Below are positions 60,517-64,000 of a stretch of DNA of 64,000 bases, piece by piece. A model generated the notes under the pieces. It did not search any database and had not been told where the DNA came from. It was given only the letters and a program-made list of their open reading frames with translations. Source of the stretch: Kineococcus aurantiacus (lineage in GTDB: Bacteria > Actinomycetota > Actinomycetes > Actinomycetales > Kineococcaceae); the NCBI RefSeq assembly GCF_013409345.1, contig NZ_JACCBB010000001.1, positions 3,906,001-3,970,000 of the forward strand, read 5' to 3'. The first letter of the stretch is position 1, and each line of letters begins with the position of its first letter. A program made the position numbers and the translations under genes.

Positions 60517-61428
60517 TCACCCCAGACGGCTGCGCGCAGCGGACTCCAGGGACCGCAGCAGGCTGTGCTGGCGCCGCACCTGCTCCAGGGAACGGTAGGG
60601 CGAGCGCACGCCCTCGTACTCGCTGGACAGCCAGCCGGTGTAGCCGTGCTCGACCAGGGTGTCCACGACGTCGGCCCAGGGGATCTGCTGGTCGACGAGG
60701 TCGTCACCGATGTCGAAGAACTTGGCCTGGATGAACACCACGTGCGGCAGGACGTCGACGAGGTCGGCCATGGGCACGGCCAGGGGCCGGCGCCACCCCT
60801 CCTCGTTGGCCTCCTCGCTCAGGCCGGCGTGCAGGCCCAGGAACGAGCGGGTCTGGAAGATGCCGGTGTCGATGAGCAGGCCGAAGTTCTTCGTGCCGGT
60901 GCGCTCGATGAACTGCACGTACCCGTCGACGACCTCGTGCCGGATCGGGGTGGGCGCGTGGATCTCGGGGCAGATGACGATCCCGAGGTCCGCGGCCAGG
61001 TCCAGGTTCCGTTCCACGACGCCCTCCCAGATGGGGTGGGGCCGCAGGTCCGTCGAGACGACGCCGATCTTGGGGCGCACCGTGCTGAACCCCAGCGTGT
61101 GGGCCAGGCGCAGGTCGCGGGCGAGGATCGCGGTGCCCTCCTCGACGGTGAGGTCGCGGTGGCGCCACATGCTGGAGTCGATCCACGAGCCGTAGTTCGT
61201 GGGCGTCAGCCCGTGGGTCTGCAGCAGGCGGTGCCAGCCGTCGATCCACGCGGTGCTGGGCTCGGGGTACCCGGGTACGTTGCCCTCGCCGAGGATCTCG
61301 ATGCCGGTGGCCCCCAGGTCGGCGATCTCGGCGGCGGCGTCCTCCAGGGTGAGGACCGTGCCGAGGTCGTCGGTGTAGCTGTAGAGCGAGACGCCGTACT
61401 GGAACCCGGGGGTGCTGGGGGTGTTCAT
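60517..61428 (-). CDS. Xylose-isomerase-like TIM-barrel protein, candidate C-glycoside deglycosidase alpha subunit (CarB/DfgA type)
   Basis: 303 residues of the sugar phosphate isomerase/epimerase fold (YGVSLYSYTDDLGTVL start). The usual metal ligands appear as E155 (with H157, CPEIHAP), D187 (LIDTGIF), Q234 (FIQAKFF) and E270 (LSSEYEG). Alone this could be any IolE/IolI-like isomerase, but it is coupled by an ATGA overlap to a DUF6379 protein and shares the operon with a pyranose-oxidase-like GMC enzyme, which together define CarB/CarC-type deglycosidases. These act on 3-keto C-glycosides and cleave the sugar-aglycone C-C bond with a divalent metal. Length fits. ATG 61428. Confidence 0.72.
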   Translation of the reverse strand: MNTPSTPGFQYGVSLYSYTDDLGTVLTLEDAAAEIADLGATGIEILGEGNVPGYPEPSTAWIDGWHRLLQTHGLTPTNYGSWIDSSMWRHRDLTVEEGTAILARDLRLAHTLGFSTVRPKIGVVSTDLRPHPIWEGVVERNLDLAADLGIVICPEIHAPTPIRHEVVDGYVQFIERTGTKNFGLLIDTGIFQTRSFLGLHAGLSEEANEEGWRRPLAVPMADLVDVLPHVVFIQAKFFDIGDDLVDQQIPWADVVDTLVEHGYTGWLSSEYEGVRSPYRSLEQVRRQHSLLRSLESAARSRLG

Positions 61429-61829
61429 GCGACGATCGTGACCTTCCGCTGGGCGGGGAACAGGGACGGCTGGAACTGCGCCGGGATGTAGGGCGCGCGG
61501 ATCGCGATGCTGACCCGCACGTCGTGGACGCCCGGCTCCAGGCCCCCGGGTTTTGGGACGGTGATGGTGGCCGCCTCGTCCAGCTGCCAGCGGACGTCGG
61601 TCGACGTGCGCAGTTCGTCGATGCTGAAGTCCCTGCCCTGCAACGTCCAGCGTGGGACCTCCCGGTCCCACGTCTCGCCGTCGACCTCGACCTCGACGCC
61701 GTCGACGAGGCTGCCCGCCACGCCGCGGTAGTTCGGCATCCGCAGCCGCAGCTGGAAGCCGGTGGTGGTGCCGTCGTCGTCGACGACGTTGCGGAAACCT
61801 CGGTTCTGGATGAGTTCTCGGTCCAGCAC
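61425..61829 (-). CDS. DUF6379 protein, candidate C-glycoside deglycosidase beta subunit (CarC/DfgB type)
   Basis: 134 residues, strand-rich, no membrane segment: LIQNRGFRNVV at the N-terminus, FQLRLRMPNYRGV, SLVDGVEVEVDGE and the end PAQFQPSLFPAQRKVTIV. This fits DUF6379, the family of the small beta subunit of bacterial C-deglycosylation enzymes. GTG 61829; its stop overlaps the isomerase-like gene by four bases, as expected for subunits of one complex. It has no catalytic residues of its own that I can name and probably shapes the active site of the alpha subunit. Confidence 0.72.
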   Translation of the reverse strand: MLDRELIQNRGFRNVVDDDGTTTGFQLRLRMPNYRGVAGSLVDGVEVEVDGETWDREVPRWTLQGRDFSIDELRTSTDVRWQLDEAATITVPKPGGLEPGVHDVRVSIAIRAPYIPAQFQPSLFPAQRKVTIVA

Positions 61830-61856
61830 GGTGTCGTCCTTCCGGTGGGTGGGGTC

Positions 61857-63503
61857 TCAGGCGCCGGCGTGCGCGGGGGAGTGCTGCAGGGCGCGGGCGA
61901 TGCTGCGCGCGCCGGCGACCGCCAGCGCGACCGAGGTCAGGGTGGGGTTGCAGGCCGTGGCGGTGGGGATGACCCCGTTGCCGGCCACGTGCAGGCCCGC
62001 GACGCCCCACACCCGGCTGTCCCGGTCGCAGACCGACGTGCCGTCGTCCTGCGCCCCCATGCGCACGCTGCCCTGGTAGTGCAGGGAAGCGCCGTTGGGG
62101 AAGGTGAGGGGTTCGTCGTCCAGGGGGTCCCCGAGGGCCAGCGCGGCGCGGCGGACGGCGGCGCGGGCCTCCTCCAGGGTGCGGTGGTCGCGGGCGGTCA
62201 GCGTGTAGTGCAGGCGCGGGGCGGGCATGCCGTTCTCGTCGACCTCGGTCTCGCTGAAGGCGACGCGGTCGCCGGCCTGGACGTCCTTGGCACAGAACCA
62301 GCCGAGCCCGACGACGGAACCGGGCACGGGGTCGTCGCCGGCGGGCAGGGGAACGGGGGAGGCGTCGAGCTGCATGACCTGCCCGTGGAAGGGGTGCTCG
62401 TCGGTGAAGGGCACCCAGCTGACCCCGCTCTGGGCGGTGATGCCGGGGGTGGTGCGCGGGTCCACGCCGAGGGTCTCCGGTTCCCCGGCGCTCTGCGGGA
62501 CGTCGCGCAGGCGGACGGCGAAGACGACCTGGGGCTGGTCGTTGAGGTAGCGGCCCAGGGCCGGCGGCCGCACGCCGGAGGCCCACAGCAGCTGCGGGGT
62601 GCGCAGGGCGTCGGCGGCGACCACGACGTGCGCGGCGGACACCTCGTGCTCGGGTCCGTCGGGACCGTCACCGGCGGACAGGTCGCGCACGCGCACCCCC
62701 GTCACGCGGCGGCCCTCGGGGCCGTCGGTGGTGAGCACCCGCGTCACGAGCGCCTCGGGCACGAGGGTGAAGCGCGGGTTCTCGCGGGTGACCGCGCCGA
62801 AGACGACGTCGGAGCCGGACCAGACGAGCCGCCCGGTCCCGTCGGGGCCGGTCTCGCGGCGCACGGCCAGCGGCATGGGCTGCACGCGGCGGCCCGGGGC
62901 CCGCCCGGCGTCGAGGGCGTCCGCGAGGCGCCGGCGGACCTCCCCGGCCAGGGGCGCCCCGGCCAGGGCGGTGCTCGAAACCCCCAGGAGGCGCTCGCCC
63001 TCGGTGAGCAAGTCGTCGAGGTCGGGCAGGAAGGGGATGCGCTCGCTGTCACCGGGGCGGGGGCACGCGCCGGTCCAGTGCGCGGCCATCCCGCCGACGT
63101 TGGTCGACACCGCCGCGGCGGGCATCCCGTCCTCGCCCGGTTGCCGCCACCCGGTCGGCAGCAGGGACGTGCCGGGGCGCACGAGGCGGTGGGCGCCGTC
63201 GGCGTACCCGTCGAGGGTGTCGGTGGGGGTGTCCGCGGCGGCCGGCCGGCGCCCCTCGGAGGCGCGCTGGGCGGCGGCGCGGGCGGCGGGGTCGGCGATG
63301 TTCTTGACGTGCGCGCCGGGCGGGTCGCTGATGAGCGGGCCGGCCTCGAACAGCACGATCGTGGCGTGCGGGGCCTGCTCGCTGAGGACGCGCGCGTAGG
63401 CGGCCCCCGCCGGGCCGCTGCCCACGATGACGACGTCGACGTGGTCGGGCAGGTGATCGGGCAGGTGGTCGGGCCGGCGGGGGGCCGGGGCGGTGGGGGA
63501 CAT
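61857..63503 (-). CDS. GMC/pyranose-oxidase-like FAD enzyme, candidate C-glycoside 3-oxidase (CarA type)
   Basis: 548-residue flavoprotein. The Rossmann motif GSGPAG is at 28-33; the pyranose-oxidase-type stretch VGGMAAHWTGACPRP at 136-150 has His142 where fungal pyranose oxidase carries its FAD-linking His; catalytic His475 (SLHYQGSVRMG) and Asn519 (ACNPTLTSVAL) have the spacing seen in pyranose oxidases. No signal peptide, so cytoplasmic. A role in oxidising the 3-hydroxyl of a glycoside before C-C cleavage follows from the adjacent CarB/CarC-like genes. ATG 63503 has AGGAGG six bases upstream. The N-terminus has a small PDHL repeat. Confidence 0.78.
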   Translation of the reverse strand: MSPTAPAPRRPDHLPDHLPDHVDVVIVGSGPAGAAYARVLSEQAPHATIVLFEAGPLISDPPGAHVKNIADPAARAAAQRASEGRRPAAADTPTDTLDGYADGAHRLVRPGTSLLPTGWRQPGEDGMPAAAVSTNVGGMAAHWTGACPRPGDSERIPFLPDLDDLLTEGERLLGVSSTALAGAPLAGEVRRRLADALDAGRAPGRRVQPMPLAVRRETGPDGTGRLVWSGSDVVFGAVTRENPRFTLVPEALVTRVLTTDGPEGRRVTGVRVRDLSAGDGPDGPEHEVSAAHVVVAADALRTPQLLWASGVRPPALGRYLNDQPQVVFAVRLRDVPQSAGEPETLGVDPRTTPGITAQSGVSWVPFTDEHPFHGQVMQLDASPVPLPAGDDPVPGSVVGLGWFCAKDVQAGDRVAFSETEVDENGMPAPRLHYTLTARDHRTLEEARAAVRRAALALGDPLDDEPLTFPNGASLHYQGSVRMGAQDDGTSVCDRDSRVWGVAGLHVAGNGVIPTATACNPTLTSVALAVAGARSIARALQHSPAHAGA

Positions 63504-63799
63504 CGGTCCTCCTGGGCGGGGTGGCACGGGCACGCCGGCGCCGGGCGACCGGGTCGCGTCGGCGGGCGGAGGACGGGATCGTCCTCGACCACGCAGGCAA
63601 CTTATGTGCTCGCAGAGCAAAAGACAACTATGTCGACCGGATGGCGCAACGGGGTGATCGCCGCGGCATCAGCGCACTGGATGACCCCCATTGGTGAGGG
63701 ACCGCCTCCGGGAGAAGGCAACTGCCTTGACTTTTGTTCCTTGTGAACACAACCTGCTCCCACGCCACCGTCGGCGCCCTCTACACGAAGGACTCAACG
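63504..63799. promoter_or_regulatory. Divergent control region of the C-glycoside cluster and sugar symporter
   Basis: This 296-base gap is clearly A+T-richer than its surroundings. It holds an inverted repeat TGCTC-GCA-GAGCA (63607-63619) flanked by CAACTTATGT and CAACTATGTC direct near-repeats, and a second inverted repeat TTGTG-AA-CACAA (63741-63752). TTGACT at 63727-63732 is a possible -35 box for the rightward gene. A regulator gene is not seen in the window. Confidence 0.5.
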
Positions 63800-64000
63800 A
63801 TGAGCGCGAGGCAAGACTCCACCCCCGCCGTCCGGCCCACCTCGCCCGCCACCCCACCCGGCACCCCGCCCGCACCGCTGCGCCTGCGCGAACGGAGCGC
63901 GTTCGTGCTGGGCGACGTGGCCGCGAACCTGGTGTGGACCACCATCTCCAGCTACCTGCTGTTCTTCTACACCGACGTCGCCCTCATCGGGGCCGCCGCC
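63800..64000 (+). CDS. GPH-type sugar:cation symporter (MFS), N-terminal fragment
   Basis: The first 67 residues only; the gene runs off the window. After a disordered Pro-rich 30 residues, RSAFVLGDVAANLVWTTISS and YLLFFYTDVALIG match the start of glycoside-pentoside-hexuronide symporters (MelB-like). ATG 63800 follows GAAGGAC. Divergent from the GMC-DUF6379-isomerase operon, it is the natural uptake system for the glycoside. Confidence 0.75.
   Translation, partial: MSARQDSTPAVRPTSPATPPGTPPAPLRLRERSAFVLGDVAANLVWTTISSYLLFFYTDVALIGAAA

What the first reader, a model, noticed from the sequence alone, without database searches (positions are those of the whole stretch)
60517..64000. Candidate complete C-glycoside catabolic cluster (CarA/CarB/CarC-like with own symporter)
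Seen: a pyranose-oxidase-like GMC flavoenzyme, a DUF6379 protein and a xylose-isomerase-like protein in one operon, the last two coupled by ATGA, divergent from a GPH symporter. Known: bacterial C-glycoside degradation uses a FAD 3-oxidase (CarA) followed by a heteromeric deglycosidase of an isomerase-fold alpha subunit and a DUF6379-type beta subunit (CarB/CarC, DfgA/DfgB). Inferred: this organism takes up plant C-glycosides (flavone or aromatic C-glucosides), oxidises them at C3 and splits the C-C bond. The substrate and aglycone fate are open.
Basis: partly seen in the sequence, partly recalled or inferred. Interest (0 to 1): 0.85.

Follow-up and report, generated by a model that had tools for sequence, protein, structure and literature searches.

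The report
C-glycoside deglycosylation genes beside ring-cleavage operon
A Kineococcus-like bacterium carries the genes that strip carbon-bonded sugars from plant aromatic compounds directly beside an operon that looks able to break down the freed aromatic ring, and the same pairing recurs in unrelated bacteria, which suggests these microbes eat the whole molecule and not only its sugar.

Summary
Window 60517-63503 (-) encodes a C-glycoside deglycosidase alpha subunit, a beta subunit (PF19906/DUF6379; coupled by ATGA) and a glycoside-3-oxidase-type GMC flavoenzyme, divergent from a GPH symporter. Family assignments are strong. The catalytic His, its helper Glu and four of five metal ligands are kept; the fifth is His->Gln, as in the closest solved relative.

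The new part lies right of the window. The symporter (frameshifted in this assembly) and a ROK regulator are followed by LysR-MFS-extradiol dioxygenase-C-C hydrolase-cyclase-FAD monooxygenase-FAH-CoA transferase-thiolase, a parts list like the flavonoid A-ring pathways fde and ifc. Deglycosidase and dioxygenase co-occur (11 of 15 versus 15 of 381 genomes) and lie within 12.5 kb in 5 of 11 genomes with both; the beta subunit is within 10 kb in 13 of 80 named dioxygenase loci. In Deinococcus aetherius both run on one strand, 134 bp apart. Best reading: import an aryl C-glycoside, oxidise sugar C3, eliminate the aglycone, hydroxylate and meta-cleave its ring. The deglycosylation half is a known kind. 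I found no description of the linkage, but a key 2024 paper was not readable. The substrate is inferred.

The parts
60517..61428 (-). C-glycoside deglycosidase alpha subunit (TIM barrel, 303 aa, no lid domain by alignment)
   Evidence: PF01261 65 bits; PDB 8qrz E 2.6e-109, 7bvs 2.2e-66, 8qvc 2.1e-32. E155, D187, K236, E270 = metal ligands; Q234 stands where AgCGD2 has His269; H157 base and E272 kept, all by motif alignment.
61425..61829 (-). C-glycoside deglycosidase beta subunit (134 aa, GTG start)
   Evidence: PF19906 CGDB 138 bits, cut-off 27.6; PDB 8qrz N-terminal part 3.6e-35, 7bvs_B (DfgB) 1.6e-21; ATGA overlap with alpha.
61857..63503 (-). Glycoside 3-oxidase / C-glycoside oxidase type GMC flavoenzyme (548 aa)
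   Evidence: PF05199 and PF00732; PDB 7qf8 7.3e-191, 7dve 1.5e-189, 8qve 2.2e-134; choline oxidase only 3.4e-12.
63504..63799 (.). Divergent intergenic region (296 bp) between oxidase and symporter
   Evidence: Coordinates; no promoter scan was run.
63800..64000 (+). Start of the GPH-type symporter; continues to about 65210 with a frameshift near 65000 in this assembly
   Evidence: TIGR00792 gph 284 bits, PF13347 292 bits; C-terminal part in another frame.

Best explanation
The window holds the head of a larger catabolic locus for aryl C-glycosides, most likely C-glycosyl flavonoids. A GPH symporter imports the intact glycoside. The FAD oxidase oxidises sugar C3 to the ketone. The metal-dependent alpha/beta deglycosidase eliminates the aglycone by breaking the aryl C-C bond. 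The freed aglycone is then hydroxylated by the FAD monooxygenase, meta-cleaved by the extradiol dioxygenase and shortened by the C-C hydrolase, cyclase and FAH proteins; CoA transferase and thiolase feed central metabolism. The logic of the pairing: the C-bonded sugar sits on the ring that the downstream enzymes must hydroxylate, so it has to go first. Shown by sequence: gene families, order, catalytic residues, co-occurrence and physical linkage. Inferred: substrate, location of the oxidase, reaction order, and that the right-hand operon acts on the released aglycone.
For: Head module. Right-hand operon: VOC dioxygenase (TIGR03211 246 bits, below that model's cut-off of 320), DHPON-hydrolase-like a/b hydrolase (2jbw 1.4e-21), cyclase, FAD monooxygenase, FAH, CoA transferase and thiolase, five of the seven junctions from VOC to thiolase being 4-nt overlaps. 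Co-occurrence in 396 genomes of the order: VOC orthologue (62% identity or more) in 11 of 15 genomes with CGDB versus 15 of 381 without, Fisher p = 1.1e-11; without the window's genome 10 of 14, p = 1.2e-10. Distance at most 12.5 kb in 5 of the 11 with both; expected 0.17 within 13 kb under random placement, P = 2e-7; without the window's genome 4 of 10, P = 9e-6. CGDB over the Pfam cut-off within 10 kb in 13 of 80 named VOC loci. D. aetherius plasmid: alpha-beta-GMC-134 bp-VOC-cyclase-FAH-hydrolase-two FAD monooxygenases on one strand. Its alpha subunit and oxidase score 750 and 1018 bits against PDB 8qvc and 8qve. The ifc cluster has FAD monooxygenase, glyoxalase-type and DHPON-hydrolase-like genes, and IfcA does not act on isoflavone glycosides (PMC11069340).
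Against: Six of the 11 genomes with both modules hold them far apart or on other contigs, and 4 of 15 CGDB genomes lack the VOC orthologue. In 67 of 80 named loci no confirmed beta subunit was seen within the held flank of up to 10 kb, some flanks being cut by contig ends, so the operon probably serves other substrates too. In a wider draw of 394 genomes of the class, CGDB and VOC were each in 5 and both in 2, both already counted. Three of the five linked genomes share one genus code; counting that genus once and leaving out the window's genome, 2 of 8 are linked, P = 0.004. The 13-kb limit was set after seeing the distances. The D. aetherius cyclase shows no tblastn similarity to the window genome's cyclase and its FAD monooxygenases only 28% and 36% identity. 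IfcA is specific to isoflavones, and disruption of the ifc hydrolase gene did not stop daidzein degradation. No fde or ifc sequence could be compared. The symporter is frameshifted in the assembly. No biochemical test.
Confidence: 0.58

Rival explanations
1. The cassette only harvests the sugar: oxidase and deglycosidase release glucose-derived carbon and the aglycone is exported; the neighbouring ring-cleavage operon serves unrelated phenolics.
For: PMC8563793 and PMC10646112 propose sugar uptake as the function. In 6 of 11 genomes with both modules they are not close. Congeners carry the operon without this cassette.
Against: Linkage at most 12.5 kb in 5 of 11 genomes, in 13 of 80 named loci within 10 kb, and the single-strand run in D. 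aetherius are hard to explain if the modules are unrelated.
Confidence: 0.2
2. The whole locus acts on another aryl glycoside: C-glycosyl xanthone, chromone, dihydrochalcone or acylphloroglucinol, or on O-glycosides that fall apart after 3-oxidation.
For: Characterised oxidases of this kind also take mangiferin, aloesin and some O-glycosides. A DHPON-type hydrolase cleaves a C-C bond beside an aryl ketone, which fits acylphloroglucinols or dihydrochalcones (chemistry recalled).
Against: Oxidised O-glycosides lose the sugar without the lyase (PMC12724307). The parts list matches the published flavonoid pathways.
Confidence: 0.17
3. The cassette is decaying or non-functional in this strain, since the symporter frame is broken and one metal ligand is changed.
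For: Frameshift in GPH; His->Gln at a metal ligand.
Against: The three enzyme genes are intact with full-length strong matches. The same Gln occurs in solved 8qrz, in the second copy of this genome and in 10 genes of 9 other genomes, so it is a subfamily trait. The frameshift may be an assembly error.
Confidence: 0.05

Closest known systems
CarA/CarB/CarC of Microbacterium sp. 5-2b and PurA/PurB/PurC of Paenarthrobacter sp. No. 37 (PMC8563793, PMC12724307)
   Same: FAD GMC oxidase plus TIM-barrel alpha and small beta subunit, aerobic soil actinobacteria.
   Different: CarB and PurB are larger (39.4 and 38.3 kDa) than the window's 303-residue lidless alpha. The parts of these papers that I read name no linked ring-cleavage operon.
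PDB 8qrz/8un2 deglycosidase (fused beta-alpha, 435 aa)
   Same: Closest solved relative of both subunits; same Gln in the metal site.
   Different: One chain; in the window and in G091 the two parts are separate genes with an ATGA overlap, in G206 and G242 one open frame. A search for its PDB codes gave only unrelated papers.
DfgA-DfgB (EuCGD, 7bvs)
   Same: Lidless alpha of similar length (290 aa); beta aligns over most of its length.
   Different: From a gut bacterium, where the oxidation is by an NAD-dependent enzyme; metal-site His kept.
PsG3Ox / CarA-type oxidases (7qf8, 7dve; names recalled) and 8qve
   Same: Full-length matches to the window GMC protein.
   Different: Substrate range of the window enzyme untested.
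fde (Herbaspirillum, naringenin) and ifc (Variovorax, isoflavones) A-ring pathways (PMC11069340, PMC11303751)
   Same: FAD monooxygenase + glyoxalase-type dioxygenase (both); DHPON-hydrolase-like gene (ifc) (window side).
   Different: Neither is described with a deglycosidase in the passages read; ifc uses cupins, the window's neighbour has cyclase and FAH; sequences not compared directly.
Deinococcus aerius C-glucosyl flavonoid/xanthonoid deglycosylation cluster (Furlanetto et al. 2024, J Mol Biol; seen only as a reference entry)
   Same: Probably the source of 8qvc and 8qve (recalled), which the D. aetherius cluster matches very closely.
   Different: Paper not held, so whether it already shows the linked ring-cleavage genes is unknown.

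Membership tests
C-glycoside deglycosidase (CGD) | Beta subunit in PF19906 | tested here: met
   138.2 bits, cut-off 27.6
C-glycoside deglycosidase (CGD) | Alpha subunit homologous to CGD alpha chains, gene next to beta | tested here: met
   8 of 8 PDB sequences matched come from entries that also match beta, best 2.6e-109; ATGA overlap
C-glycoside deglycosidase (CGD) | Metal ligands 2 Glu, Asp, His, Lys | tested here: inconclusive
   Glu, Asp, Lys, Glu kept; His replaced by Gln234, as in 8qrz
C-glycoside deglycosidase (CGD) | Base His and assisting Glu | tested here: met
   H157 and E272 at the positions of AgCGD2 H149 and E307, by motif alignment
C-glycoside deglycosidase (CGD) | Cleaves 3-oxo-C-glycosides | not testable with these tools
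   Needs enzyme assay
Glycoside 3-oxidase / C-glycoside oxidase (GMC) | Closer to PsG3Ox/CarA than to choline or alcohol oxidases | tested here: met
   639 and 635 bits versus 49 for choline oxidase; no tree was built for the oxidase
Glycoside 3-oxidase / C-glycoside oxidase (GMC) | Oxidises C3 of C-glycosides | not testable with these tools
   Needs enzyme assay
GPH symporter | TIGR00792 over cut-off and intact frame | tested here: not met
   284 bits, cut-off 231, but the frame is interrupted near 65000: family yes, intact gene no
fde/ifc-type flavonoid A-ring pathway | FAD monooxygenase, extradiol dioxygenase and C-C hydrolase in one operon | tested here: met
fde/ifc-type flavonoid A-ring pathway | Orthology to FdeE/FdeC or IfcA/IfcB | not tested
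   No fde or ifc sequences at hand; a search centred outside the window's own group was not accepted
fde/ifc-type flavonoid A-ring pathway | Degrades a flavonoid | not testable with these tools
   Needs growth or enzyme assay

The most novel reading that the evidence does not exclude
Bacterial aryl C-deglycosylation is, in many soil actinobacteria and Deinococcus, the access step of one integrated mineralisation pathway: different deglycosidase subfamilies were joined several times to the same A-ring hydroxylation and meta-cleavage operon, so the aglycone ring, not only the sugar, is the food.
Probability: 0.43. Interest if true: 0.65.

Novelty: new variant of a known kind. Interest (0 to 1): 0.55.

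Why it matters
C-glycosyl flavonoids are stable plant products whose fate in soil is poorly known. Two papers on these enzymes suggest sugar uptake as the function (PMC8563793, PMC10646112), and the first calls for study of the other genes in the cluster. The linkage names such genes, gives the aglycone a predicted fate and makes it directly testable with a handful of enzymes. It also supplies a genomic marker (CGDB beside the VOC operon) for organisms that should grow on whole C-glycosides.

Tried and rejected
Considered and rejected: the GMC protein as a choline/alcohol oxidase; the 134-aa protein as an unrelated hypothetical; a chance overlap of reading frames (full-length family matches).

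Led nowhere: a direct comparison with fde/ifc sequences (no named source at hand; not accepted; the two fde papers tried are not held); literature on PDB 8qrz (one search listed two unrelated papers); Novosphingobium, Enterococcus and other plasmids with CGDB (18 records) were listed, and only the Arthrobacter one was opened (found first by its VOC gene). The Rhizobium rhizogenes K84 plasmid has a VOC 45%, hydrolase 53% and FAD monooxygenase 36% alike, spread over about 14 kb, of unknown function; it served as outgroup only. A wider genome draw over the class added no new linked case.

Corrected on the way: one search counted 15 of 80 loci with a beta subunit; L145 and L157 failed Pfam, leaving 13. 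The first tree used the uncorrected labels (19 linked, 11 changes, 0 of 500 shuffles as low); with corrected labels it is 17 linked, 56 not, 12 of 85 rows set aside (contig ends, outgroup), 13 changes, at least 9 forced by starred branches, 14 of 500 shuffles as low. Changes may be gains or losses, so the number of independent joins is not fixed. Ten further genomes (31-39% identity) were left out of the co-occurrence count. No structure was predicted, as solved relatives are close.
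Full report
WHAT IS THERE. The window is G000:C1:3906001-3970000 of a two-contig, 5.03-Mb genome. On the minus strand lie an alpha subunit (60517-61428), a beta subunit (61425-61829) and a GMC oxidase (61857-63503). Alpha and beta overlap by ATGA. Divergently, a GPH symporter starts at 63800.

FAMILY ASSIGNMENT. The beta subunit matches Pfam PF19906, C-glycoside deglycosidase beta subunit, with 138 bits. All 8 solved sequences that match alpha at E up to 0.001, best 8qrz with 2.6e-109, come from entries whose beta part or partner matches our beta; 8 of 9 matches of beta at E up to 1 are of that kind, the ninth (2m19, E 0.6) being chance-level. 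The oxidase matches 7qf8 and 7dve with 639 and 635 bits, 8qve with 453, pyranose oxidase 9fl2 with 192; pyranose 2-oxidase entries reach 98, choline oxidase 49. I recall 7qf8 as PsG3Ox and 7dve as a CarA. From the published AgCGD2 sites (PMC8563793), alpha keeps the base His (H157), the assisting Glu (E272) and ligands E155, D187, K236 and E270, but has Gln234 for His269. The same Gln is in 8qrz, in the second copy of this genome and in 10 genes of 9 other genomes, while others seen keep His, so it is a subfamily trait. Alpha has no lid domain by its alignment to 8qvc (28 residues against 66 between the flanking blocks); DfgA also lacks it.

SPLIT AND FUSED FORMS. In G206 and G242 the same two parts form one open frame; in G000 and G091 they are separate genes with the ATGA overlap. 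Open frames of 435-474 aa around CGDB in G102, G269, G317, G326, G206, G242 and G383 point the same way.

RIGHT OF THE WINDOW. Fetched DNA (L009; genes called; extrapolated window coordinates): symporter to about 65210, with the last part in another frame from about 65000; ROK regulator 65331-66596; LysR 66635-67555; MFS 67806-68900; VOC extradiol dioxygenase 69023-70048; alpha/beta hydrolase 70052-71206; cyclase 71203-72189; FAD monooxygenase 72218-73357; FAH 73354-74367; CoA transferase A and B to 75709; thiolase to about 76869. Families. The hydrolase's best solved relative is 2,6-dihydroxy-pseudo-oxynicotine hydrolase, 2jbw, E 1.4e-21. The FAD monooxygenase has no second copy in the genome at E up to 1e-20.

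WHY THIS LOOKS LIKE A FLAVONOID RING PATHWAY. In Variovorax V35, isoflavone catabolism uses a group A FAD monooxygenase (IfcA, 8-hydroxylation) and a glyoxalase-type protein (IfcB, 66% identical to FdeC), with a DHPON-hydrolase-like gene in the cluster (PMC11069340, passages and one section). IfcA did not act on isoflavone glycosides, and the authors suggest that a sugar at position 7 or 8 may block it. That would explain why deglycosylation must come first. Against a simple transfer of the idea: IfcA was specific to isoflavones, and disruption of the hydrolase gene did not affect daidzein degradation. I could not compare sequences with fde or ifc.

LINKAGE TEST. In 396 genomes of the order, CGDB was in 15 and a VOC orthologue (62% identity or more) in 26. 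Both were in 11, that is 11 of 15 against 15 of 381, Fisher p = 1.1e-11; without the window's genome 10 of 14, p = 1.2e-10. These values ignore kinship. Of the 11, five have them within 12.5 kb (7.2, 8.1, 8.6, 12.4 and 5.8 kb), expected 0.17 within 13 kb under random placement, P = 2e-7. The other six have them 1.6-1.7 Mb apart (2) or on different contigs (4). Without the window's genome it is 4 of 10, P = 9e-6; three of these four share one genus code, and counting that genus once gives 2 of 8, P = 0.004. The 13-kb limit was chosen after seeing the distances. A sixth CGDB genome, G269, lacks the VOC orthologue but has cyclase, FAD monooxygenase and FAH homologues in the same island. In a draw of 394 genomes of the class, CGDB and VOC were each in 5 and both in 2 (G000 and G102), so nothing was added.

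NAMED LOCI. A scan of named genomes with a VOC alignment kept the best 80 of 222 relatives. Within 10 kb, 15 of 80 had a beta-subunit hit by tblastn; 13 passed the Pfam cut-off and L145 and L157 did not. The 13 are in Leifsonia (5), Microbacterium (5), Naasia, Pseudolysinimonas and Pseudarthrobacter enclensis. Nineteen of 80 carry a GMC gene alike to the window's or the second locus's oxidase (over 150 bits) within 10 kb. Some flanks are cut by contig ends. On a VOC tree the linked label needs 13 changes, at least 9 by well-supported branches; it is only weakly clustered (14 of 500 shuffles as low), and gains cannot be told from losses. The alpha subunits near the operon are of at least three sorts: like the window's (window, G206), 51% like the second locus's (D. 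aetherius), and a sort about 30% like the second locus's (Leifsonia, Microbacterium and others); no tree of alpha was built.

DEINOCOCCUS. On D. aetherius plasmid pDAETH-1 the order is LLM oxidoreductase, NAD(P)H oxidoreductase, GH3, ABC sugar transporter, alpha, beta, GMC, 134 bp, VOC (67% identical to the window genome's), cyclase, FAH (41%), hydrolase (66%), two FAD monooxygenases (28% and 36%), on one strand apart from a GntR regulator after GH3. The cyclase is a PF04199 protein but showed no tblastn match to ours. Alpha and GMC score 750 and 1018 bits against PDB 8qvc and 8qve. A 2024 J Mol Biol paper on a D. aerius gene cluster for C-glucosyl flavonoids and xanthonoids, seen only as a reference entry (not held), is probably their source (recalled). 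An Arthrobacter plasmid (StoSoilB13) also holds beta and alpha genes about 11 kb from the VOC gene.

SECOND LOCUS. The genome has another deglycosidase locus at 1.53 Mb (L010): isomerase, beta, alpha, GPH, TetR, flavin reductase, luciferase-like monooxygenase, GH3, GMC, isomerases. Two of ten sampled congeners, G005 and G007, have this locus (alpha 99% and 91%), and in none of the ten was the window's cassette found. Six of the ten have the VOC gene. The D. aetherius run looks like this second locus joined to the right half of the first, an indirect sign that all belong together. The window cassette's nearest relative seen is in G091, another family of the order (69% alpha, 71% beta, 63% oxidase), so acquisition by transfer is plausible but was not tested.

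MECHANISM AND LIMITS. Shown: families, residues, order, linkage. Inferred: import of the intact glycoside (the oxidase is taken as cytosolic from its N-terminus by eye, no signal predictor was run), C3 oxidation, beta-elimination, aglycone hydroxylation and meta-cleavage. The sugar product needs hydration and reduction; I saw no gene for that in the cassette, and the second locus's isomerases are candidates.

PRIOR ART. Seen: PMC8563793 (abstract, two of three parts of the results and one further results section, discussion, passages), PMC12724307 (abstract, introduction, part of the methods, results, discussion), PMC10646112, PMC11303751, PMC6064089, PMC13273386 and PMC11673046 (passages), PMC10807413 (abstract, first of three parts of the results), PMC10628242 (abstract, one section), PMC11069340 (abstract, passages, one section). 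PMC8563793 and PMC10646112 suggest sugar uptake as the role. Ten searches listed no paper that, from its title and start of abstract, describes the linkage; one search showed only 20 of 37 papers, and subscription papers are mostly absent from the library.

VERDICT. The deglycosylation half is a new member of a known kind. The recurrent joining to a ring-cleavage operon makes it a new variant and gives a testable aglycone fate.

Noticed in passing
window 63800 to about 65210 (L009:5801-7212): The GPH symporter frame is interrupted about 1.2 kb into the gene in this assembly; the remaining C-terminal part is readable in another frame. Error or real mutation unknown.
   Followed up: partly
L010:7952-19901 (G000:C1 about 1.528-1.540 Mb): Second C-glycoside locus with alpha, beta, GPH, GH3, luciferase-like monooxygenase, flavin reductase, GMC and sugar isomerases; also in two of ten sampled congeners.
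   Followed up: partly
window 60517-61428; 8qrz: Metal-site His is Gln in a deglycosidase subfamily that includes solved 8qrz.
   Followed up: partly
L145:6177-6470, L157:6241-6495, L159:6341-6607: Beta-subunit-like proteins below the PF19906 cut-off or without a Pfam match near the VOC operon: possibly a divergent branch.
   Followed up: no
L129, L141, L150: Luciferase-like monooxygenase, GH3 and TetR genes beside the VOC operon in Arthrobacter-type genomes, as in the second locus of this genome and in D. aetherius.
   Followed up: no
plasmid hits H55-H71: PF19906-like proteins on Novosphingobium, Croceicoccus, Sphingobium, Niallia and Enterococcus raffinosus plasmids.
   Followed up: no
G102, G317, G326, G269 (L073-L080, L083-L084): Islands with four beta-subunit genes over the Pfam cut-off each (a weaker fifth in G317 and G269) in one genus code, pointing to expanded C-glycoside use.
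   Followed up: partly
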